A stretch of DNA of 64,000 nt from an uncultured Thermoproteales archaeon (GTDB lineage: Archaea > Thermoproteota > Thermoprotei > Thermoproteales > Thermoproteaceae), in assembly GCA_938027595.1 (NCBI GenBank), contig CALJAK010000007.1:141982-205981 (forward strand), given 5' to 3'. Below the pieces are notes generated by a model. That model saw nothing but the letters and a program-made list of their open reading frames with translations, searched no databases and was not told the DNA's origin. Within the stretch, counting starts at the first letter, position 1; every line of letters begins with the position of its first letter. This document shows, in pieces, positions 7,695 through 61,395 of the stretch. The translations under genes and the position numbers were made by a program.

Positions 7695-8237
7695 ATGGCA
7701 GAAGAGGAAAAAAGAGTAGAGCGAGTCCAGTTAGAAGAACGGGGAGACAAGCGCGTGCTTGTGATTAGGTGGAATACAGGAAAGACGTCAGCCGGTCGGT
7801 TGTTCGGTAGATATGGAGCGGGAGGCAAGCCGGACTTCTTTAGACTTCTCTTCGGAGCCATAGCTGGCTCTCTCAGTGAAAAAATGCCCACAGGCAGCGA
7901 GGTGTTCGCCAGAATCAAAGACACAGACGCATTTAGACACAGCACTAGAGAGATATTTGAAAATATAAAAAAGTGGTTTTTTAACGAAGTAGCGCCCCGG
8001 TACCATCTTGACAAGGGAGATATCTTTATGTTAATTACAGAAATTGAGGTAGACATCGACAAAGGTGAAGTGACGTGGAGACCGGAAAAGACTGAGTTCT
8101 ACTACTGGGTCAGAAGCGACAGATGCCGAGGGTGTGAAGAATTGGCTGAGGAAAATGCTAGACTTAGGAAAGAAGTTGAAACTCTACGCGCAGAGTTGGC
8201 GCAAGTGAGAGAGAAACTCTCCACACTCCTCAAGTAA
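7695..8237 (+). CDS. ThermoDBP-like single-stranded DNA-binding protein
   Basis: 180 aa. A basic N-terminal domain (about 8-142) with many aromatic residues (W26, F37, F48, F49, W94, F95, F96, W128, F135, Y136, Y137, W138) is followed by a heptad-patterned coiled coil (146-180) suited to dimerisation. This is the architecture of ThermoDBP, the protein that replaces the OB-fold SSB in Thermoproteales. A CRGC motif (144-147) sits at the junction. The assignment rests on layout and remembered family features, not on a search. Preceded by a strong TATA element; converges with the aminotransferase, overlapping it by 8 bp. Confidence 0.65.
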   Translation: MAEEEKRVERVQLEERGDKRVLVIRWNTGKTSAGRLFGRYGAGGKPDFFRLLFGAIAGSLSEKMPTGSEVFARIKDTDAFRHSTREIFENIKKWFFNEVAPRYHLDKGDIFMLITEIEVDIDKGEVTWRPEKTEFYYWVRSDRCRGCEELAEENARLRKEVETLRAELAQVREKLSTLLK

Positions 8238-9490: not shown

Positions 9491-9631
9491 ATGGAGGTAG
9501 TATCTATCACAATTTCAGAAAGTGAACTAGAGAAATTAGTCAAAAGATGTGAAAATTACGGCTTTGACAATCTAAACGATTGTGTAAATATGGCGTTGGC
9601 TCGCCTCTTGTACATATACAAGGGATTATAG
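9491..9631 (+). CDS. 46-aa ribbon-helix-helix-type regulator (small ORF)
   Basis: Translates from ATG to TAG as 46 aa, beginning MEVVSITISESELEKLV and ending LARLLYIYKGL. The pattern is that of a CopG/MetJ-type ribbon-helix-helix: a beta strand with alternating residues (VVSITIS), helix 1 (ESELEKLVKRCENYG), a turn, then helix 2 (LNDCVNMALARLLYIY). The family is normally 40-55 aa, so this is a whole protein. A TATA box is correctly spaced upstream. It ends tail-to-tail with the NurA-like gene, overlapping by 6 bp, and may regulate the neighbouring divergent aminotransferase or the cassette; that is inference. Confidence 0.7.
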   Translation: MEVVSITISESELEKLVKRCENYGFDNLNDCVNMALARLLYIYKGL

Positions 9632-10357
9632 CAAGTCTTTGGGATGTATCTGATTCCTCCCAATTGTCCACAACAAAAACTTCACGCTGTTGAGATATTT
9701 TTTGTTCATCTTAGATAAATGGTGCGCTAGGCGGAGCTTGATGGGGTACCTCACGAACAATCGGCAGAGGTCTTCAATTTTCAAACTCTTTGGATACTCC
9801 ACGTAAATCACCCAATCTGACTTGAGATACGTCCCGTAGTACCCGCCGACTTCCACCGGCTTTAGGTAAGAACCGCGGGGCCACCGACTCAAGACGCTGG
9901 CTGCCGTCGCCGACTCTCCCCAGAGTTTAGACATCTTTATGAAAACACTCCTCGCGCCGCCGTGGGGCATGTTAGGTCCATATCTAGCCTCAGCGGGTCC
10001 CTTTGACACTCCCACAATATGCCCCCCAGCTCTATAGGGCGTCAACGGTCCGTCGAGTAGAACTAACCCCTCTACTTCTTCGGCGAAGTTTATCTCGTTG
10101 AGTCTCGCATCTCTATGTGGATCTTCTACTCTCTTCACAACAACTCTCCGCCTGACTTCCCTACCGACAGCCACTAGCGACTGTATCAAAACGTTTGTGT
10201 TTCTAAATCTCTGGACTGCGTACCCAGAGTCCACCGCCGTGTAGTTGATGGGGGGACCACCACTGCATGGAGTCGCCAACTCTCCCAACTCTAAATACCC
10301 ATCATTTACATATTCAAATTCGACAAATTTCAAAATTTCAGACAACAATTGGCGCAT
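9626..10357 (-). CDS. NurA-like nuclease domain protein
   Basis: 243 aa, shorter than the canonical NurA elsewhere in this window (378 aa). It shows the two recognisable NurA elements: an early AVDSGYA motif with D43, and LVLLDGPL with D102, which in NurA coordinate Mn for 5'-3' exonuclease and endonuclease activity. The middle contains SRWPRGSYLKP, compatible with the structural core of the family. Its ATG overlaps the TAA of the preceding gene by one base, so it is translated with a large ATPase cassette, paralleling how HerA and NurA are paired. Family assignment is moderate. Confidence 0.65.
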   Translation of the reverse strand: MRQLLSEILKFVEFEYVNDGYLELGELATPCSGGPPINYTAVDSGYAVQRFRNTNVLIQSLVAVGREVRRRVVVKRVEDPHRDARLNEINFAEEVEGLVLLDGPLTPYRAGGHIVGVSKGPAEARYGPNMPHGGARSVFIKMSKLWGESATAASVLSRWPRGSYLKPVEVGGYYGTYLKSDWVIYVEYPKSLKIEDLCRLFVRYPIKLRLAHHLSKMNKKYLNSVKFLLWTIGRNQIHPKDLL

Positions 10358-10854
10358 TAATAAATCTCTCCAACTAGCTTTTCAAAAATTTTCTCCAACT
10401 TTTCTCTAGACATTTCGCCCACGATATCTAACACATGTGTGGGCAATTTGTCTACCTCACCTCTGAGATACTTATTCAACGCGGCGAGCGTGGGGGAGTG
10501 TCTATACTTCCGCCTCTCTGAAATTACGAGTTCTTTCAATCTCTTGTACTCGTCGCCCTCTCTAGACCACTTGAGAACTTCAGAGATTTCACTCTCAATC
10601 TTGTCAATGTACAGCGAGAGTGGCTCTGCTCTTATGACTACCCTACCGTCGATCACTGCGGCCACGGGCTTCTTTGTGAACTTCCCAACGCCAATTGTGA
10701 CTCCCCCCTCCACGGGAGCTATGGCTATTAGAGACTTCAACTCCCGGCCACCCAAAATCACCACATCGTAAAACTGCGGTGGTCCCCTGGCGTCAATCAC
10801 CACATCTCCCTCCACCTCTTCACTTCCCCTACGTATGACCACTCTAAGTGACAT
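10357..10854 (-). CDS. unknown protein, middle gene of ATPase/NurA-like cassette
   Basis: 165 aa from the ATG at 10854; a TTG at 10875 would add 7 residues. The ATG start overlaps the end of the ATPase gene by 11 bp. The N-terminal half is beta-rich (VVIRRGSEEVEGDVVIDARG, then a strand-turn-strand pattern to about residue 80); the C-terminal half is helical and charged with many Glu, Lys and Arg. No catalytic motif is evident. Its place between an ATPase and a nuclease suggests an adaptor or DNA-binding subunit, but this is inference and I do not recognise the family. Confidence 0.8.
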   Translation of the reverse strand: MSLRVVIRRGSEEVEGDVVIDARGPPQFYDVVILGGRELKSLIAIAPVEGGVTIGVGKFTKKPVAAVIDGRVVIRAEPLSLYIDKIESEISEVLKWSREGDEYKRLKELVISERRKYRHSPTLAALNKYLRGEVDKLPTHVLDIVGEMSREKLEKIFEKLVGEIY

Positions 10855-13666
10855 ATCTCTTCTCCACAAGTCCAACTCTGTACATTTTTTCTAAACTATC
10901 CTCCACCTCTCCCCGCGGTACGTCTATCTCTCTGGCTAACTTCTCTACGTCAATCAAGACCCCCCTCCCAACGCGAGCCACCGCCCACACCACTCTTGGA
11001 GACGCCCCGATTTTTGCAGACAGCGCTTCGACTGTCGCTTCCTCCATCCCTAGTTGTCTCGACCACTCGGACAACGTTTTCTTGACTTTCTGCGCCTCCA
11101 CGTGTTTTTCGTACCTCTTCCCCAACTCCACTGCGTAGAGTTTCAAATCGGCTAGATACCCATCTAATGGAGGCTCCGGGAGCTCCAGCAGTAGAGATAA
11201 ATCTCTCTCCACATCCACGGCGTCGTTGAGTTCTAGAGCCATGTGTCTTATCTCACCCCAGACCTTAGAGATGTCCTCTACTCTCTGTAGAATCCGTTCT
11301 TCTCTTTTCACAATGTCTTCGTTGATGTTCTCCACGAACTTCCGCCTTTGCGGCAATTTCTCTACTACTGTAGCCACTCTCTTCGCCAGTTTGTACTTCT
11401 CTTCTAACTCTTTCTCTGCTTCTCTCTTCACTTTTTCGTATAATTCTTCAAATTCAAGCAACTTCCGAGTTATCTCCCGTAGGATTTTTGCATAACTTGA
11501 CTGATTGTGGAAAGCGATGTTCACTTGGGAGGTGTTTAGTTTCTTCTCTATTTTCAAAACTCCCAGAGGTGTTTCTTTCTCAACTACAACTCTACTCATG
11601 GCGTGTAGCTTAGCTAACAAGTCGTGGAGATGTTGTCTCGCCATGTCTTCTCTGAATTTGTACAACAACTCGCCGCGTGGGATTAACTTACCCCGTAGAG
11701 TCATGAGTTCTACCAAGTCGTCTTCTCGCATATCTCTCCAGAGAAATACAGGGAAGAGCGTCTTCACCAATGACTTTAACTCTTTTTCGTGTATTGGCTC
11801 CTCCACTGCTTGTAGCATTTCTTCAATTGCGAAATACGCCTTGAGTCCCTCTACTTCTTTCTCTTCGTCTAGAGCCTCCGCCGCCTTGAGGAGCGCCATT
11901 TGTTTCTTCTCCTTCCCCTTCCTCAACGCCAGTGTGTACTTCACAACGTTTTCTCTAGCTTTTTCTCTCCCCAGTCGCACTACATCTACAAACTCCGGCG
12001 TCTCCACGTCGCGTTTCAAGATTTTCTCCACGGCGTATTTCACGAGTGTGTGTCGGAGTTTTTCTATCTTGTCTGCGCCGTATGTCAACACTGTGGTGAA
12101 CTCAGACGCCGACTCTCTGTAGTACCTCTTCCAGTATGCAGTTTGGAGAGGCGCCACGGCGTTTTGTATAGTTTCCGTAAGTAACACTCTGCTAGTTATG
12201 AACACAGCCACGTAATCTACTGCGTACTCGCCCAGTGCGCCCTGGGAGACAATTGCAGCCAGCTGGGCAGCCACTCGCTTCAATTCGTCGTCTCTATCGA
12301 CGTGGAAAAATAGATACAACTCCCTCATGCCCATGTTGTTTAACCACACTCCATGCCCACAACAGACGCGTAGCTTTATGCCGGATATGCCCAGCGCTCT
12401 CTCTATCTCTTCCAGGAGGACTGGTGGGTTTTCCAATTTTTGTCCATATTCTCTCGCTAAAGCTTTAACGTTCTGCACTTCGTCTCCCAACACTCGTTTA
12501 GCTACTTCTTCCGAAATCACGTAACGTCTCCCCACCGCTGGAATGTCTAACGCTTCTTCAGCTATGAGGTAGAGATATAACCTGCCCCCCTCAACTAACG
12601 TGTAGTAGAGATACGGTTCGTACGAGACGTTTTTTGGGTCTCTCAAATCTAAATCTCTACCCCGCGCTGCGACGTAGTCTCTAACTACACTCATAGCGTT
12701 TTTGTCGTCATATGGAACTCTATAGAGATAAACTTCTCGCGATATGTAAGTTCTCTCTTCGTGCGGAGTGCCGGCGAAAGCCAACTCCAACACCCAATCC
12801 TCCACGTCTGGGTCTATCCCCTCCTCTCTCAACAAGTGAGCCAACCCCCCACCTGACTTCTTTATCTGCAGTAGTCTAGCCATGTATTTCATCAACGACC
12901 TCGGGGTGGTCTCTCCCTTTCTTCTAGCCAAGTGATACACAGCCGCTAGCTCGTGAAGCGTGAAGGGACTCAACGAGTCAAGTTCTCCAATCTCTATCTT
13001 GCGACGTCTCTCCTCTGGGGAATAAGCCGCAAGTCGCTGTCTCACTACTTCTACAAAATTCCAAAATGGAAATCTAGTGTCTATCACAATCTCTCTATAC
13101 ACTCTGCCAGTAGTTATGTCAAACACGTCGGGCACTACGTTTTTCAAAATTGTGTAGTACAACTGAGGCGTCAACGCAGCTATTATCAAAATTTTGGTGA
13201 ATTTTCCACTTTTCAAAATGTGGCGGTACGACTTGGGTTCTAGGAGAGCTCTAATGTAAGTGGCGACTCGTTGAATCATCTTCATGAATTTCTCGTCGGT
13301 TAAAGCCCCCAATTTGTGAGCCATAGCTATGCGGGAAATTTCGTCAGCTTCGTCAATCAAAACCACCAGCGGTTTGTTGCTCTCCGCCAGTGCAAACTCC
13401 CACTCCAGCGACAACGCCGTGCGGACTACTTCGAAACCGTTTTCTCTAGCCATTTGTTCAATTTCGTCGAGGAGTTCGCTCTTGCCCCAGCCGTAGGGAG
13501 CTATCACTACAGTCAAGACGTTGTTTTCGCCTTCTTTCATTAAGCTCATGACTTCGGCGATTTCTCTCAATTCTCTCTCTAGACCTACGGCTTTGTGTAG
13601 TTTAACGATGTGAGTGACACCGCTGGGGCTGAAGGGATGGTCTACAAAGGCGTACACGTGTGGCAT
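10844..13666 (-). CDS. large P-loop ATPase with C-terminal helical and winged-helix regions
   Basis: 940 aa from the ATG at 13666; a TTG at 13696 adds 10 residues. An N-terminal AAA-type module has Walker A APYGWGKS (56-63) and Walker B LVVLIDEADE (100-109). The central region is mixed alpha/beta. A charged coiled-coil segment lies at roughly 730-800, and the last 70 residues read as a winged helix (REIDVPRGEVEDSLEKMYRV), so DNA binding is likely. The first residue of the Walker A is Ala rather than Gly. Downstream genes encode an unknown protein and a NurA-like nuclease, suggesting an ATP-driven DNA-processing machine. No close family is recognised. Confidence 0.85.
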   Translation of the reverse strand: MPHVYAFVDHPFSPSGVTHIVKLHKAVGLERELREIAEVMSLMKEGENNVLTVVIAPYGWGKSELLDEIEQMARENGFEVVRTALSLEWEFALAESNKPLVVLIDEADEISRIAMAHKLGALTDEKFMKMIQRVATYIRALLEPKSYRHILKSGKFTKILIIAALTPQLYYTILKNVVPDVFDITTGRVYREIVIDTRFPFWNFVEVVRQRLAAYSPEERRRKIEIGELDSLSPFTLHELAAVYHLARRKGETTPRSLMKYMARLLQIKKSGGGLAHLLREEGIDPDVEDWVLELAFAGTPHEERTYISREVYLYRVPYDDKNAMSVVRDYVAARGRDLDLRDPKNVSYEPYLYYTLVEGGRLYLYLIAEEALDIPAVGRRYVISEEVAKRVLGDEVQNVKALAREYGQKLENPPVLLEEIERALGISGIKLRVCCGHGVWLNNMGMRELYLFFHVDRDDELKRVAAQLAAIVSQGALGEYAVDYVAVFITSRVLLTETIQNAVAPLQTAYWKRYYRESASEFTTVLTYGADKIEKLRHTLVKYAVEKILKRDVETPEFVDVVRLGREKARENVVKYTLALRKGKEKKQMALLKAAEALDEEKEVEGLKAYFAIEEMLQAVEEPIHEKELKSLVKTLFPVFLWRDMREDDLVELMTLRGKLIPRGELLYKFREDMARQHLHDLLAKLHAMSRVVVEKETPLGVLKIEKKLNTSQVNIAFHNQSSYAKILREITRKLLEFEELYEKVKREAEKELEEKYKLAKRVATVVEKLPQRRKFVENINEDIVKREERILQRVEDISKVWGEIRHMALELNDAVDVERDLSLLLELPEPPLDGYLADLKLYAVELGKRYEKHVEAQKVKKTLSEWSRQLGMEEATVEALSAKIGASPRVVWAVARVGRGVLIDVEKLAREIDVPRGEVEDSLEKMYRVGLVEKRYVT

Positions 13667-13708
13667 TGTATAGTTGTATATATGTACAACAGCCAAGAAA
13701 TCACAACG

Positions 13709-13742: not shown

Positions 13743-14222
13743 GTGTTGAGGAGGTGTAAAGAACAAGATGTCCAATTTATTTACCAAATAGAGAAAGAGT
13801 CTTTCAAAGAAGACGACGTATATAGCGTGGAGCTTTTGAAGTTTTTGTGTTCTTTCTGTGGCGATTATTCCTACGTCTATCTCGCTGACGGAAAGCCCGT
13901 GGGGTACATAATTACATGTATAGAAAACCACTCTGCACATGTGATATCTATCGCAGTCGCGCCGCAGCATCGGAAGAGAGGAGTCGGGGCGGCTCTACTC
14001 TGCACTGCGTTGGAGTTGTTGTATAGAAAGAGAGTGGCGGAGGTATATCTAGAGGTGAGAGTTTCCAACTCCCCAGCGATTTCGTTCTATCGCTCGGCGG
14101 GTTTCGAAATTGCCGAGTTGGTGAAGAATTACTACAGCGACGGGGAAGACGGTTACAAATTCGTGTTGAGAGACGCAAATAGAGCTAGAGACTTCTGCAA
14201 GAGACGTTTAAATAATGTGTGA
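13743..14222 (+). CDS. GNAT-family N-acetyltransferase, RimI/Ard1-like
   Basis: 159 aa from a GTG. The acetyl-CoA site is visible as ISIAVAPQHRKRGVGAALL (about 69-87) with the Q/RxxGxG/A signature RKRGVG, and the C-terminal LEVRVSNSPAISFYRSAGF segment is the RimI/NAT hallmark, including N and Y near the acetyl-transfer centre. Archaeal RimI homologues acetylate protein N-termini or ribosomal proteins. It opens a three-gene operon and overlaps the next gene by 4 bp. Confidence 0.9.
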   Translation: MLRRCKEQDVQFIYQIEKESFKEDDVYSVELLKFLCSFCGDYSYVYLADGKPVGYIITCIENHSAHVISIAVAPQHRKRGVGAALLCTALELLYRKRVAEVYLEVRVSNSPAISFYRSAGFEIAELVKNYYSDGEDGYKFVLRDANRARDFCKRRLNNV

Positions 14223-14734
14223 AATATGTGAACGTCTGCATCGCCAGCGGGGGCAAGGGGGGCACTGGCAAAACAACATTCGCCACAGTGTTGAGCTACG
14301 TTTGGAAAAATTACGGCGTCTCTGTCAGTTTATCCACACCACTGAGGCGCGCCGGCGGTGGGGTAAACGTCGTGGACTTTCCCACGTTCCAGACTACAGA
14401 CGTGATTTATGTAGAGAGTCTCTTGAAGTGTCACGGCGTGATTTACGTAGTGGAGGAAGACGTGGAGTGCGTCAAGGCAGTGGATCAAATCCACGTAATT
14501 GCCAAGAGAGACGTGTGGGGAGTTGTGGTGAACAAAGTGTTTGCGAAACCCAGCAAGTTGTTCCAGAAACTCTACGGTAGGTTGGGCCCACTGTACGTTG
14601 TACATTTTGACGAGAAGTTAGCTATGCACAGAGCTGTCGGCATGTCGCCACATGAAGTGAGGTCGCGAGCTGTGTTGGAGATGGGTAGAGCGGCTGTGGA
14701 CATTCTAAAGTTTAAATTTGGAAAATCAACGTGA
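14219..14734 (+). CDS. minimal MinD/ParA-like P-loop ATPase
   Basis: 171 aa from a GTG overlapping the GNAT stop. The deviant Walker A GGKGGTGKTT (11-20) carries the signature lysine K13 and K18, and VVDFP at 51-55 matches the switch II region. The protein is about 80-90 residues shorter than typical MinD/ParA: the segment with the DxD motif after the first helix is missing, since strand two runs straight into the switch region. Overall it looks like a compact nucleotide switch. Function is unknown; the neighbours are an acetyltransferase and a phosphoesterase. Confidence 0.8.
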   Translation: MKYVNVCIASGGKGGTGKTTFATVLSYVWKNYGVSVSLSTPLRRAGGGVNVVDFPTFQTTDVIYVESLLKCHGVIYVVEEDVECVKAVDQIHVIAKRDVWGVVVNKVFAKPSKLFQKLYGRLGPLYVVHFDEKLAMHRAVGMSPHEVRSRAVLEMGRAAVDILKFKFGKST

Positions 14735-14737
14735 GAC

Positions 14738-15505
14738 GTGCGTGGTTTATTGTTCAAAAACCGCCGGCGGCGAGTTCTGCTGCTTGCCGACACACATGTG
14801 GGTTACGAAGTGGAGTTGAGGAAGAGCGGCGTTAATGTAGTTAGCCAGACGGAGAAGTTAACCACGGCGGTGTTGGAGCTAGTTGATTTCCACAACGCCA
14901 CCTCTGTGGCCATACTGGGCGACGTGAAGCACGAGTTGCCAGTGCCAAGAGAGAGTGCGGAGGAGGTGAGGACGTTTCTCAAACGGTTGGCCAAGAGCGT
15001 GCCGGTGTTGTTGATTCCCGGAAATCACGACTCCATGCTTCACGAAATTGCGTCTGGCATCGACGGCGTTGAGGTGGGGCCCACCCGCGGCGTGTTTCTG
15101 GGGAGGACGCTGTTGACTCATGGACACGTGAAACCCAATAGGGAGGATTTAGAAGCGGCGGAGGCGTTAGTCATGGGGCACACACACCCAGCTGTTGTGG
15201 TGCGTGACGAGATTGGCTACGCGTCGAAAGAACCCGCAGTCTTGAAGATATACACGTCGCGGGTTAAGTTCTGCAAATCGCTCTATGGAGAGCCTTGTAG
15301 ACGCCGCGATAGAGTTAAAATAATCGTGCTGCCGGCGGCTCATCCGTTGATAACTGGCGTTGAGGTGAGAGAAGTGCCGCAGCTAGCCAGAGAGGGCCGC
15401 ACTCTTTTAAAGTACGTAGAGTGGACGCCAGACGACGTGGAGATATACCTAACCGACTTGACTTACATGGGGACGTTTTCAGACTTGGTGGCAATTTCGC
15501 CATGA
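14738..15505 (+). CDS. metallophosphoesterase, calcineurin-like (COG1407 type)
   Basis: 255 aa from a GTG. The metal-binding signature is complete: DTH (18-20), GDVKHE, GNHD and GHTHP, which bind a dinuclear metal centre. The archaeal COG1407 proteins with this arrangement are predicted ICC-like phosphoesterases without a settled substrate. It starts 3 bp after the MinD-like gene stop and completes the operon. The C-terminal portion after GHTHP includes several Cys and Arg residues (FCKSLYGEPCRRRDR) that may form an additional binding site. Confidence 0.85.
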   Translation: MRGLLFKNRRRRVLLLADTHVGYEVELRKSGVNVVSQTEKLTTAVLELVDFHNATSVAILGDVKHELPVPRESAEEVRTFLKRLAKSVPVLLIPGNHDSMLHEIASGIDGVEVGPTRGVFLGRTLLTHGHVKPNREDLEAAEALVMGHTHPAVVVRDEIGYASKEPAVLKIYTSRVKFCKSLYGEPCRRRDRVKIIVLPAAHPLITGVEVREVPQLAREGRTLLKYVEWTPDDVEIYLTDLTYMGTFSDLVAISP

Positions 15506-58291: not shown

Positions 58292-58904
58292 ATTGGTGGC
58301 TGATTTAGTTGCGTTATCCACAGTGGAGGGTCTTTCGATAACTGAAGCCGCCAGGAGGTTGTGTATGACTAGGCAGGGTCTGTACAAAGTAGTGAAGATG
58401 TTGAGGAGAGAGGGGTATTTACTCGAGGGGCCCACTATCAAACTCTCTCAAAAAGCTAGAGAGCAGTTGAGTCTCGCCCTCCAGGACTTGTTAAAATATT
58501 TTAAAATCACCTCCATAACTCTCGTGGGGTACGTCACTAGTGGTCTTGGAGAGGGTGCGTTTTATCTATCTCTAGAGGGATATAGAAGAGGGTTTGAGAA
58601 AAATCTCGGATTCTCACCGTACTTAGGCACGTTGAACATTAAGCTAGAGCCGGAGTCTATCTACCGGAGGCGGTATTTAGACGCACTGCCCGGCATATAC
58701 ATACCCGGCTTCTCAAATGGCTTTAGGACTTACGGTGGGGTTAAAGCTTTTAGAGCTCGAGTGGGGGACGTGGAGGCCGCCGTGATTATACCAGAGAGGA
58801 CACACCACTCTATAGACGTGATTGAGGTAATTGCCCCAGTGAAGTTGAGAGAGGTTCTTAATTTGAAAGACGGCGACCGCTTGGATGTTGAGGTGTATTT
58901 ATGA
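58272..58904 (+). CDS. ribK: CTP-dependent riboflavin kinase with N-terminal HTH (RibK/RbkR type)
   Basis: 210 aa from a GTG. The N-terminal HTH (GLSITEAARRLCMTRQGLYKVVKML, about 18-42) is fused to the archaeal kinase domain with GLGEGAFYLSLEGYRR, LGFSPYLGTLNI, the basic YRRRY, and VIPERTHHSIDVIEVIAPVKLRE. It makes FMN with CTP; the HTH fusion (RbkR) also represses riboflavin genes in several archaea. Its product feeds FAD used by the GGR encoded two genes upstream. Confidence 0.92.
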   Translation: MSCPDRRLVADLVALSTVEGLSITEAARRLCMTRQGLYKVVKMLRREGYLLEGPTIKLSQKAREQLSLALQDLLKYFKITSITLVGYVTSGLGEGAFYLSLEGYRRGFEKNLGFSPYLGTLNIKLEPESIYRRRYLDALPGIYIPGFSNGFRTYGGVKAFRARVGDVEAAVIIPERTHHSIDVIEVIAPVKLREVLNLKDGDRLDVEVYL

Positions 58905-60262
58905 AGTTGTCTAGAGAAGTGGGCATTGTGGTGAGTGGAGCGACGGTGGGTTCCATCCCGGTGCAGATATACCGCGCTGCAGAGCGATATGCGCTTGAGG
59001 AGCAGTTAGTGGCGGTTGTTGACGGAGAAAACCCCACCGAGGTTTTAGTGGGGTTTCTCCGCAGAGTTACCAAACTAGAGCCGGTGGTGAGAGAGAGAGT
59101 GAGAACTCCCTACGTAGACAAGCCAGAGATGGTAGACCAAGGCATTTTGTTGCCCTACACTTCTGCGATTGTGAAGCCGTATGTGACACTTAAAGACGGC
59201 GCAATTCGCGAAGTACAACACGTAGCCACGCCGGGGTCTAGAGTGTATCTACTGGACTCTGAAGTTTTGAGATCTGTCTTTGGCGATAGTTATGCATACG
59301 TCGGTGTGCATAAACACTCTGGCTGGCCGCTGCCTCTAGATGTGAATTATGTATCGCACCACGTGGGTGTCTTCGGCTCTACTGGCATGGGGAAGTCGAG
59401 GTTAGTGAGGGCGTTAGTTAACGAGCTAGTGGCGTGGGGGTATAAGGTAGTTATCTTCGACCACACTGGTGTTGATTACTCTCCACATTACCAAACTGTG
59501 GTAAAGTCCTCGGAGGTGAAGATCCCACCGAACGTGTTGGCTTCGGTGTTGGCTAGAGTGAGTGGGCTCAATTGGCAGACTTACGGTGATTATTTAGAAA
59601 TAGCCACGTTGACGTACAGCGATAGGTGGTCGAAGAAGTTTGTAGATCACCTCAAAACAACGATGCGGAGGCTCAACGCTAGAGAAACTACCATGGAGAA
59701 AGCGATGCTCTACATGAAGATGGTGGACGAGAAATTCTTCGAGGGGTTGAACGAGAGAGTGGTAACGCCTCGGGAGATTCTCGAAATGAACGCCACGCCT
59801 GTGGTGATTGACATGAGTTACGATATCGACATTTCTGTAAAGCAAGCGATCGTAGCTACTGTAATAGAAGCGGCGTGGGACAAAGTGAAAAACGAGAAAA
59901 CGCCTATGAAGATAGTGTTTGTGGTGGACGAGGCGCAGAATTACGCTCCCCACCAGACGTGGGCACTTTCTAGAGATGCCATCGAAACTACCGTGAGGGA
60001 GGGGAGGAAGTGGGGGCTCTCGATGGTTTTGGCTAGCCAGAGGATAGTGGGTGACGTTGACCCCTCGATAAGGGCGAACTTAGGCACGATATTCTTCTCG
60101 AGACTCTCGGCGCCTACAGACGTCAGAGAGATATCTGCATATCTAGACTTGGCAGACGTGAACGAAAGCGTCTTGGCGCAACTTCAGCCGAGAGAGTTCT
60201 TCGTCTCGGGGTTGATGAATCCCTTTAGGAAACCGGTGCTCCTCAAAGTGAAGGAGGTATGA
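58901..60262 (+). CDS. herA: HerA bipolar helicase/ATPase
   Basis: 453 aa. N-terminal HAS-barrel (1-about 100), FtsK-like ATPase with Walker A GSTGMGKS (159-166), Walker B FVVDEAQNYAP, and the C-terminal arginine finger region FSRLSAPTDVREI. Hexameric HerA drives NurA for end resection in double-strand break repair. Overlaps ribK and nurA by 4 bp each. Confidence 0.95.
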   Translation: MKLSREVGIVVSGATVGSIPVQIYRAAERYALEEQLVAVVDGENPTEVLVGFLRRVTKLEPVVRERVRTPYVDKPEMVDQGILLPYTSAIVKPYVTLKDGAIREVQHVATPGSRVYLLDSEVLRSVFGDSYAYVGVHKHSGWPLPLDVNYVSHHVGVFGSTGMGKSRLVRALVNELVAWGYKVVIFDHTGVDYSPHYQTVVKSSEVKIPPNVLASVLARVSGLNWQTYGDYLEIATLTYSDRWSKKFVDHLKTTMRRLNARETTMEKAMLYMKMVDEKFFEGLNERVVTPREILEMNATPVVIDMSYDIDISVKQAIVATVIEAAWDKVKNEKTPMKIVFVVDEAQNYAPHQTWALSRDAIETTVREGRKWGLSMVLASQRIVGDVDPSIRANLGTIFFSRLSAPTDVREISAYLDLADVNESVLAQLQPREFFVSGLMNPFRKPVLLKVKEV

Positions 60263-61395
60263 TGGAAGAGGATTATTTGCTTGATTCTGATTTACTGATT
60301 GCTATACGTAGAGACATAGCGAGGCACTTAGACAAATTTGAGAAATTTAGAGATGTGTTGATTGAAGTGAAGCAACTGAGAGACAAGTTGGAGATAAAGA
60401 AATTAGGCGCAGACCACTTGGACACATACGCAGTGGATTCCTCCCACACGCAGCCTATAGAACTCATCGGTGGCGTTTTTTCATTAGTGACGTACGGCTA
60501 CGTCGGCATTTCGGGAGGCGTACGAGACAGATTCATGTCTGGATCTATCTACTTCGACGACGGTGATGAGAGCGGAATTTCTAAACATGCAGCCCAACTT
60601 GAAAAGAAGTTAGCCACAAAACTACTGAAAGCAAAGAAGTTGGGCACGAAAAATTTCGACTTGTTGTTGCTAGACGGCGAAATTACTATACGTCCACTGT
60701 TTTTCGCCTCCGAGAAGAGATATGGAGAAGTGAACCAAGTGGTAGACCAAATGTTGAAGTGGGCATATATGTCCAAAACCACCGTGGCGTCTATAGCTAA
60801 GCGAGTTAGGTCTCGGTACCTCTCTACAGTGGCCGGCAGGTGGCTTGACGTCAATGACAAAATTGCCGCCTCTCTCATACTGCAGCCGGGGGAGTACTTC
60901 TCTCTAGGTAAACTACGCCAACTGCTGCCGGCGTGGGCTTTGGCGTACTACACCCGCGACGTGGATAGAGAGTTAGTGTTGAAGTGTCACAGAGATGGCG
61001 AGCAGCCGGCTGACGACACGACAAAACTACGTTGTGGAAAACTCAGAAAATTCGAGAGAGACTTCACGGAGTTTCTAAATTCTTCAAAGTATCTAAAGCT
61101 GTTGGGTGAGGTGGAGGTTGTTTTCTACAAACCGCCGGGGCATAGATCGGCAGTTCGCGTGGAGGTGCTGGACTTGGGTGAGTTGGGAGTCGAGAGAGTG
61201 GTGTCTCACTTGGCGTCTTCCACGTCGTCAGTGACTGGCTTACCGCAGATACTCGACGCGGTAGATCAATACGTCAGAGCTTCGCCAGAGTTGGCGGAGC
61301 AGTTGTTGACAATGTTGATGTCTAAAACCGCCAGCGACTTCACGCTCTTCATGTGGCCCACCAACCCGCAGAAGAGACTATTGGGTAGGTATTAG
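60259..61395 (+). CDS. nurA: NurA nuclease
   Basis: 378 aa, canonical NurA length. Active-site motif YAVDSSHTQP (D60), DLLLLDGEITIRP with the second Asp, and a C-terminal region with HLASSTSSVTGLPQILDAVD. It degrades 5' ends with HerA and Mn. Its start ATG overlaps the herA stop. The 3' end converges on DUF711 (18 bp overlap). Confidence 0.94.
   Translation: MMEEDYLLDSDLLIAIRRDIARHLDKFEKFRDVLIEVKQLRDKLEIKKLGADHLDTYAVDSSHTQPIELIGGVFSLVTYGYVGISGGVRDRFMSGSIYFDDGDESGISKHAAQLEKKLATKLLKAKKLGTKNFDLLLLDGEITIRPLFFASEKRYGEVNQVVDQMLKWAYMSKTTVASIAKRVRSRYLSTVAGRWLDVNDKIAASLILQPGEYFSLGKLRQLLPAWALAYYTRDVDRELVLKCHRDGEQPADDTTKLRCGKLRKFERDFTEFLNSSKYLKLLGEVEVVFYKPPGHRSAVRVEVLDLGELGVERVVSHLASSTSSVTGLPQILDAVDQYVRASPELAEQLLTMLMSKTASDFTLFMWPTNPQKRLLGRY

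What the first reader, a model, noticed from the sequence alone, without database searches (positions are those of the whole stretch)
9626..13666. Undescribed cassette: large P-loop ATPase, unknown adaptor and NurA-like nuclease
Three co-directional genes overlap (11 bp and 1 bp), so they are translated as one unit. The first has an AAA-type core with an Ala-led Walker A (APYGWGKS), a long charged coiled coil and a C-terminal winged helix; the last has the AVDSGY and LLDGPL motifs of NurA. The canonical HerA-NurA pair is elsewhere in the window (58901-61395), so this is a second, different ATPase-nuclease pairing. It could be a DNA repair complex or an antiviral system. Motifs are seen; the system role is inference.
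Basis: partly seen in the sequence, partly recalled or inferred. Interest (0 to 1): 0.78.

Follow-up and report, generated by a model that had tools for sequence, protein, structure and literature searches.

The report
Order-wide ATPase–adaptor–NurA-type nuclease operon
Three overlapping genes encode an ATP-burning motor, a small protein of unknown fold and a DNA-cutting enzyme; they are inherited together by nearly every member of one whole order of heat-loving archaea and by nothing else searched, which points to an undescribed core DNA-processing machine rather than a passing antiviral cassette.

Summary
On the minus strand, ATPase (10844-13666), adaptor (10357-10854) and NurA-like nuclease (9626-10357) overlap by 11 and 1 bp. 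The nuclease passes Pfam's NurA cut-off; its family profile matches the solved S. solfataricus NurA (E=3.4e-7) and keeps the D/E/D residues. The ATPase is a 940-aa AAA+ protein whose repeated specific fold matches are Orc1/Cdc6. It is not HerA and not demonstrably BrxC. The adaptor has no sequence or fold match. The ATPase is in 25/25 good genomes (8/8 genera), all three genes are in 38/40 loci, and no convincing ATPase or adaptor was found elsewhere in ~400 phylum genomes; the ATPase is absent from viral contigs, phages and plasmids. Genus-monophyletic trees, housekeeping flanks and single copy argue for vertical inheritance. ThermoDBP, the order's ssDNA-binding protein, lies close by in Thermoproteaceae. 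A housekeeping ATP-driven nuclease is likeliest (0.5); an antiviral role is weaker (0.2). The 'canonical' HerA-NurA pair in the window is a second pair; the one followed by Mre11- and Rad50-like genes is on another contig. I found no description of the trio. Function is inferred.

The parts
10844..13666 (-). Large AAA+ ATPase, 940 aa: AAA+ core ~30-270, alpha+beta middle ~309-600, winged helix ~605-672, coiled coil 722-871, C-terminal winged helix ~879-940. ORF can be extended to a TTG at 13696.
   Evidence: pLDDT 85.7; Orc1/Cdc6 fold matches; in 25/25 good Thermoproteales genomes. Domain limits read from the predicted secondary structure.
10357..10854 (-). Adaptor (165 aa from ATG at 10854; ORF opens at TTG 10875): eight-stranded N-terminal part, long helix, small helical C-terminal part; unknown fold. 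'Adaptor' is inferred from its middle position only.
   Evidence: pLDDT 86.7; no fold match, best E 0.15; same genomes as the ATPase; no Pfam family
9626..10357 (-). NurA-type nuclease, 243 aa, catalytic D43/E88/D102 conserved, motifs AVDSGY, LLDGPL and YPIKLRLAHH
   Evidence: PF09376 28 bits; invariant D43, E88, D102; profile vs 2ygk NurA E=3.4e-7; 22 of 24 members hit PF09376
13667..13742 (.). 76-bp AT-rich intergenic region between the ATPase ATG and the divergent GNAT gene; probable promoter region of the trio
   Evidence: sequence; GNAT start 13743. Promoter role is inference.
7695..8237 (+). ThermoDBP (Thermoproteales single-stranded DNA-binding protein), conserved near neighbour of the trio in Thermoproteaceae; functional link is a hypothesis
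   Evidence: PF18361 E=2.9e-54; cluster c10

Best explanation
The trio encodes one ATP-driven DNA-processing nuclease that is part of the core chromosome-maintenance equipment of the order Thermoproteales. Proposed working: the AAA+ ATPase (Orc1/Cdc6-like core, two winged helices, a long coiled coil) assembles on DNA; ATP turnover loads, moves or remodels DNA; the adaptor couples the ATPase to the NurA-type nuclease, probably a dimer as in other NurA; and the nuclease cuts single strands presented to it in an Mn-dependent reaction. Likely substrates are DNA ends, flaps or stalled forks, with ThermoDBP covering the single strand produced. Shown here: gene order, overlaps, co-inheritance, NurA family membership with catalytic residues, AAA+ motifs and predicted fold of the ATPase. 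Inferred: complex formation, motor action, substrate, and the repair/replication role.
For: ATPase in 25/25 good-quality order genomes and all 8 genera; all three genes in 38 of 40 loci while the next most shared neighbour is in only 15; adaptor and ATPase in the same genomes, nothing convincing elsewhere in 398 phylum genomes. Exact 11-bp overlap recurs. All three trees recover every genus as one group; inter-genus distances correlate 0.78-0.88. NurA profile and catalytic residues. Orc1/Cdc6 structural matches. Flanks sampled in other families are largely housekeeping or DNA-repair genes, e.g. Endo_dU endonuclease. ThermoDBP beside the trio in Thermoproteaceae and nearly co-extensive with it. 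No HerA in any trio locus. Context: Thermoproteales RecJ homologues have an inactivated nuclease domain (PMC3307487) and most species lack an OB-fold SSB (PMC8998557).
Against: No experiment and no predicted complex. Vertical inheritance alone would give congruent trees, so the distance correlation is weak evidence for interaction. ThermoDBP is not beside the trio outside Thermoproteaceae, and one genus (g7) has the trio without a PF18361 match. The trio evolves somewhat faster than most neighbours (49-59% identity within the genus against 50-75%). One MAG (G009) keeps the ATPase with ~3.8 kb of downstream sequence but no adaptor or nuclease was found; a few incomplete MAGs lack the ATPase and adaptor altogether.
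Confidence: 0.5

Rival explanations
1. Fixed antiviral or anti-plasmid system: a BREX-like ATPase + adaptor + nuclease arrangement (compare BrxC + BrxB + PglZ) in which NurA is the effector and the ATPase senses or captures foreign DNA.
For: The ATPase layout (AAA+ of Orc/Cdc6 type, winged helices around an alpha+beta part, coiled coil) resembles the published BrxC/DUF499 layout (PMC12839542); BrxB bridges BrxC and PglZ (PMC13326643); weak P-loop matches to BrxC_BrxD, SngB and mad8 models; HerA-NurA has been proposed to be antiviral (PMC12977600) and one Pyrobaculum nurA-herA pair sits with CRISPR (PMC3396285).
Against: Near-universal, single copy, vertical, restricted to one order, no copies in viral contigs, phages or plasmids; flanks largely housekeeping; no constant defence partner; profile comparison with eight BrxC finds only the P-loop (probability 6%).
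Confidence: 0.2
2. Chromosome organisation, segregation or replication-initiation factor: the ATPase acts as a DNA-bridging or loading machine (Orc1/Cdc6-like core with long coiled coil), and the NurA-type subunit trims or resolves DNA rather than degrading it.
For: Orc1/Cdc6 structural hits, coiled coil and C-terminal winged helix, a MinD/ParA-like P-loop gene as close divergent neighbour in Thermoproteaceae.
Against: Coiled-coil matches to a chromosome-organiser-like defence protein (JetC, 2 of 24 members) are weak; the MinD-like neighbour is not conserved beyond the family.
Confidence: 0.15
3. Processing of DNA taken up or delivered by the Thermoproteales DNA-exchange (Ted) system: the trio prepares or degrades the single strand.
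For: Ted is also Thermoproteales-wide, and NurA-HerA has been proposed to supply ssDNA for it (PMC9905601); similar phyletic range to the trio.
Against: No Ted gene was recognised among the trio neighbours examined, though Ted genes themselves were not searched for; phyletic coincidence with any order-wide trait is weak evidence.
Confidence: 0.07
4. Inactive or moonlighting NurA relative serving as a structural subunit; the ATPase is the only active enzyme.
For: Two divergent members fall below the NurA model, and the C-terminal His of the YPxxLxxAH motif is Asp outside the genera g1 and g2.
Against: Asp43, Glu88 and Asp102 are invariant in all 24 sequences; an aspartate is essential in T. kodakarensis NurA (D49A, PMC12977600; equivalence to D43 assumed from the motif, not aligned here).
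Confidence: 0.08

Closest known systems
HerA-NurA (archaeal translocase-nuclease pair)
   Same: NurA-family nuclease with conserved catalytic residues, encoded overlapping with a partner gene of an ATPase operon; likely ATP-coupled DNA cutting.
   Different: The motor is an AAA+ protein with Orc1/Cdc6-like fold matches, winged helices and coiled coil, not a HerA/FtsK-type DUF87 ATPase; a third, unknown protein lies between; the nuclease is shorter (243 aa against 378 and 463 aa for the two HerA-linked NurA ORFs of the same genome).
BREX core BrxC-BrxB-PglZ
   Same: Large AAA+ ATPase with wHTH / alpha+beta / wHTH / coiled-coil layout plus a smaller bridging protein plus a nuclease (analogy in layout, from PMC12839542 and PMC13326643).
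   Different: No detectable sequence homology beyond the P-loop; no similarity of adaptor to BrxB; nuclease is NurA, not PglZ; vertical order-wide inheritance.
CRISPR-linked nurA-csm6-herA cluster of Thermoproteales (Bernick et al. 2012, PMC3396285)
   Same: A NurA paralogue in the same order of archaea.
   Different: That cluster has HerA and Csm6. Their Table A2 pairs every listed nurA with a herA (three pairs for P. aerophilum), so the trio nuclease, which has no herA mate, appears not to be listed; I could not match locus tags directly.
Orc1/Cdc6 AAA+ initiators
   Same: Predicted ATPase model matches Orc1/Cdc6 structures, including P. aerophilum Cdc6 1fnn, probability 1.0.
   Different: Low TM-scores (0.14-0.21 by query, up to 0.48 by target), 9-18% identity, more than twice the length, coiled coil and C-terminal winged helix added.

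Membership tests
NurA nuclease family (PF09376) | Score above the curated Pfam cut-off | tested here: met
   28 bits against 21; 22 of 24 family members match; 72.8 bits in G027
NurA nuclease family (PF09376) | Homology to a solved NurA over most of the length | tested here: met
   Profile A2 vs 2ygk_A, E=3.4e-7, profile 19-256 to chain 22-327; the fold of the nuclease itself was not predicted
NurA nuclease family (PF09376) | Catalytic Asp/Glu/Asp set | tested here: met
   D43, E88, D102 invariant in 24 sequences, aligned with 2ygk motifs AIDGG, LELSL, LMDGS
NurA nuclease family (PF09376) | Mn-dependent nuclease activity | not testable with these tools
   needs biochemistry
HerA-NurA system | HerA/DUF87-type partner ATPase | tested here: not met
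   ATPase has no PF01935 match; no HerA-like ORF in any of 40 trio loci
BREX (BrxC) | BrxC sequence homology beyond a P-loop | tested here: not met
   PF10923 only at its cut-off (22.2) and only over the P-loop; profile comparison with 8 BrxC probability 6%, AAA+ part alone 33%, middle part 0.6%
BREX (BrxC) | Linked PglZ and PglX | tested here: inconclusive
   No gene besides the trio is shared by most loci; neighbours were not all scanned for PglZ/PglX
AAA+ ATPases, Orc1/Cdc6 clade | Walker A/B plus Orc1/Cdc6-like fold with winged helix | tested here: inconclusive
   Motifs met, fold search probability 1.0 but low TM-scores; no sequence-level assignment to the clade
Known anti-phage defence systems (PADLOC) | Confident match to a defence-system component | tested here: not met
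   Only weak P-loop, winged-helix or coiled-coil hits, best E of the window protein 2e-4; no hit for adaptor or nuclease

The most novel reading that the evidence does not exclude
An undescribed, lineage-defining and probably essential DNA-processing machine of all Thermoproteales, in which NurA is driven by an Orc1/Cdc6-type AAA+ motor through an adaptor of new fold, filling a gap left by the altered single-strand toolkit of the order (inactivated RecJ nuclease domain, SSB replaced by ThermoDBP).
Probability: 0.35. Interest if true: 0.8.

Novelty: new variant of a known kind. Interest (0 to 1): 0.6.

Why it matters
NurA is known from its pairing with HerA; whether that pair does end resection or antiviral degradation is now disputed (PMC12977600). 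A NurA-type nuclease with a different motor, kept as a core gene set by a whole order that also replaced its ssDNA-binding protein, gives a clean comparative case for what motor-nuclease machines do in archaeal DNA maintenance, and makes three 'hypothetical' order-wide families directly testable.

Tried and rejected
Replacement of HerA-NurA: rejected, the genome also has two herA-nurA pairs, one followed by Mre11- and Rad50-like genes. BrxC membership: rejected by profile comparison. Adaptor as a HerA HAS barrel or a BrxB relative: no support (the HerA side was only two sequences, so this is a weak test), no PDB or viral fold match, so 'adaptor' stays a positional label. Mobile or defence-island origin: no ATPase relatives in viral contigs, phages or plasmids. 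L042 first seemed to lack the adaptor; it is present next to the nuclease, ~4 kb from the ATPase on the other strand. L047 first looked like an adaptor-nuclease fusion; the profile search places the adaptor in its own frame. Coiled-coil hits in the PDB list and the RFC hit at profile 494-574 were set aside as composition or weak. Papers: no description of the trio found, but the library lacks most subscription papers, including the original ThermoDBP paper.
Full report
Observation. On the minus strand the window holds a 940-aa ATPase (start ATG at 13666, stop at 10844; the ORF can be extended to a TTG at 13696), a ~165-aa protein (ATG at 10854, stop at 10357) and a 243-aa protein (10357 to 9626). 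The overlap is itself conserved: the exact 11-bp ATPase/adaptor overlap recurs in loci of several genera, and adaptor/nuclease spacing is within a few bases in most. Translational coupling is read from the sequence; an operon is inference.

What the proteins are. (a) The 243-aa protein is a NurA-family nuclease: Pfam NurA 28 bits (cut-off 21), 22 of 24 relatives match, and the family profile matches the solved Sulfolobus solfataricus NurA 2ygk over most of its length at E=3.4e-7. Asp43, Glu88 and Asp102 are invariant. The C-terminal YPxxLxxAH motif keeps His in the two main Thermoproteaceae genera and has Asp elsewhere, a real difference of unknown effect. In T. kodakarensis NurA the active-site residue D49 is essential (PMC12977600); its equivalence to D43 is assumed from the motif. 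The nuclease structure itself was not predicted: the two prediction jobs went to the other proteins. (b) The ATPase is an AAA+ protein with Walker A and B motifs. AlphaFold2 gives mean pLDDT 85.7. Apart from generic AAA+ hits such as dynein and p97, the repeated matches are Orc1/Cdc6 and ORC subunits with probability 1.0 but low TM-scores. Two winged-helix regions and a coiled coil of about 150 residues follow. (c) The adaptor is predicted with pLDDT 86.7 as an eight-stranded part, a long helix and a small helical part; no PDB or viral model match better than E 0.15, no Pfam family.

Distribution. The ATPase is found in 41 of 45 Thermoproteales genomes and 25 of 25 good-quality ones, in all eight genera. 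The genomes missing it are incomplete MAGs (completeness 54-88%). With the profile, no convincing match falls outside Thermoproteales among the other orders of the class (only coiled-coil or P-loop fragments, best E 2.5e-6), among 398 phylum genomes or in the collection of one genome for each of 84,980 species, which returned only loci titled Thermoproteales genera or uncultured Thermoproteota/Thermoprotei bins. The adaptor profile finds 38 Thermoproteales genomes plus two weak, stop-containing matches elsewhere. Viral contigs, phages and plasmids give nothing for the ATPase.

Linkage. In 38 of 40 loci all three genes are present; one exception is a 3.2-kb contig that ends inside the ATPase, the other (G009, a 69% complete MAG) has the ATPase but no partner found. 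In one genome (G034, L042) adaptor and nuclease stay together but lie about 4 kb from the ATPase on the other strand. The next most shared neighbour occurs in 15 loci. Flanks differ by family; those examined are largely housekeeping: RNA polymerase, RNase P subunits and pseudouridine synthase (recognised by eye from sequence), RimK-type ligase, radical SAM and Endo_dU endonuclease. No HerA-like ORF is in any trio locus. Trees of the three proteins each recover every genus as one group, and inter-genus distances correlate at 0.78 to 0.88; that shows vertical inheritance, and alone does not prove interaction.

Correction of context. It is a real HerA-NurA pair, but nurA-herA followed by Mre11- and Rad50-like genes is on contig C8 (the latter two named by eye). 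The genome thus has three NurA genes: two with HerA and the trio one without. Bernick et al. list nurA-herA pairs of Pyrobaculum (PMC3396285); a nuclease without a herA mate does not appear in their table.

Neighbour of note. ThermoDBP (PF18361) lies at 7695-8237, two genes downstream on the other strand, and is a near neighbour of the trio in most genomes of the two main Thermoproteaceae genera. It is found in 41 of 45 order genomes, but genus g7 has the trio without it, and it is unlinked in the other families. Most Thermoproteales lack an OB-fold SSB (PMC8998557) and their RecJ homologues have an inactivated nuclease domain (PMC3307487). A link between the trio and this altered single-strand toolkit is a hypothesis.

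Mechanism. I propose an ATP-driven nuclease: ATPase assembles on DNA, adaptor couples the NurA-type nuclease, nuclease cuts exposed single strands, in chromosome repair or replication. HerA-NurA is the working precedent: the motor feeds DNA to a NurA dimer that is itself ssDNA-specific (PMC12977600). The BrxC-BrxB-PglZ core is an analogy for ATPase-bridge-nuclease (PMC13326643). Each step beyond gene order, family membership and predicted fold is inferred.

Rivals. Antiviral: the layout resembles published BrxC (PMC12839542), but profile comparison with eight BrxC finds only the P-loop and the inheritance pattern is that of a core gene. Chromosome organisation and DNA import are less supported. 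Trio identity within the genus (medians 49-59%) is lower than most neighbours (50-75%) and, for the nuclease, somewhat below the HerA-linked NurA (47% against 55-59% for one genome pair), so there is no sign of arms-race speed, though this is a crude measure.

Novelty. Every component class but the adaptor is known (AAA+ ATPase, NurA); the combination, the adaptor and the order-wide core status are not described in what I could read. I file it as a new variant of a known kind: a motor-coupled NurA nuclease.

Noticed in passing
window 58901-61395 and L114 7385-13857 (contig C8): The genome has two herA-nurA pairs; the one followed by Mre11- and Rad50-like genes is on C8, so the window pair is a second pair.
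   Followed up: partly
window 7695-8237: ThermoDBP, the Thermoproteales single-stranded DNA-binding protein, is a conserved near neighbour of the trio in Thermoproteaceae; genus g7 shows no PF18361 match although it has the trio.
   Followed up: partly
window 13743-15505: Divergent GNAT, MinD/ParA-like P-loop and metallophosphoesterase genes are conserved beside the trio within Thermoproteaceae; the MinD-like protein is only weakly matched by Pfam.
   Followed up: no
   Followed up: no
L055 14260-14859 (Vulcanisaeta-type locus): An Endo_dU (DUF99) deoxyuridine endonuclease is a close neighbour of the trio in genus g8.
   Followed up: no
L068 (G009): ATPase present without adaptor or nuclease in ~3.8 kb downstream and nowhere found in that MAG; possible partial loss or incomplete assembly.
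   Followed up: partly
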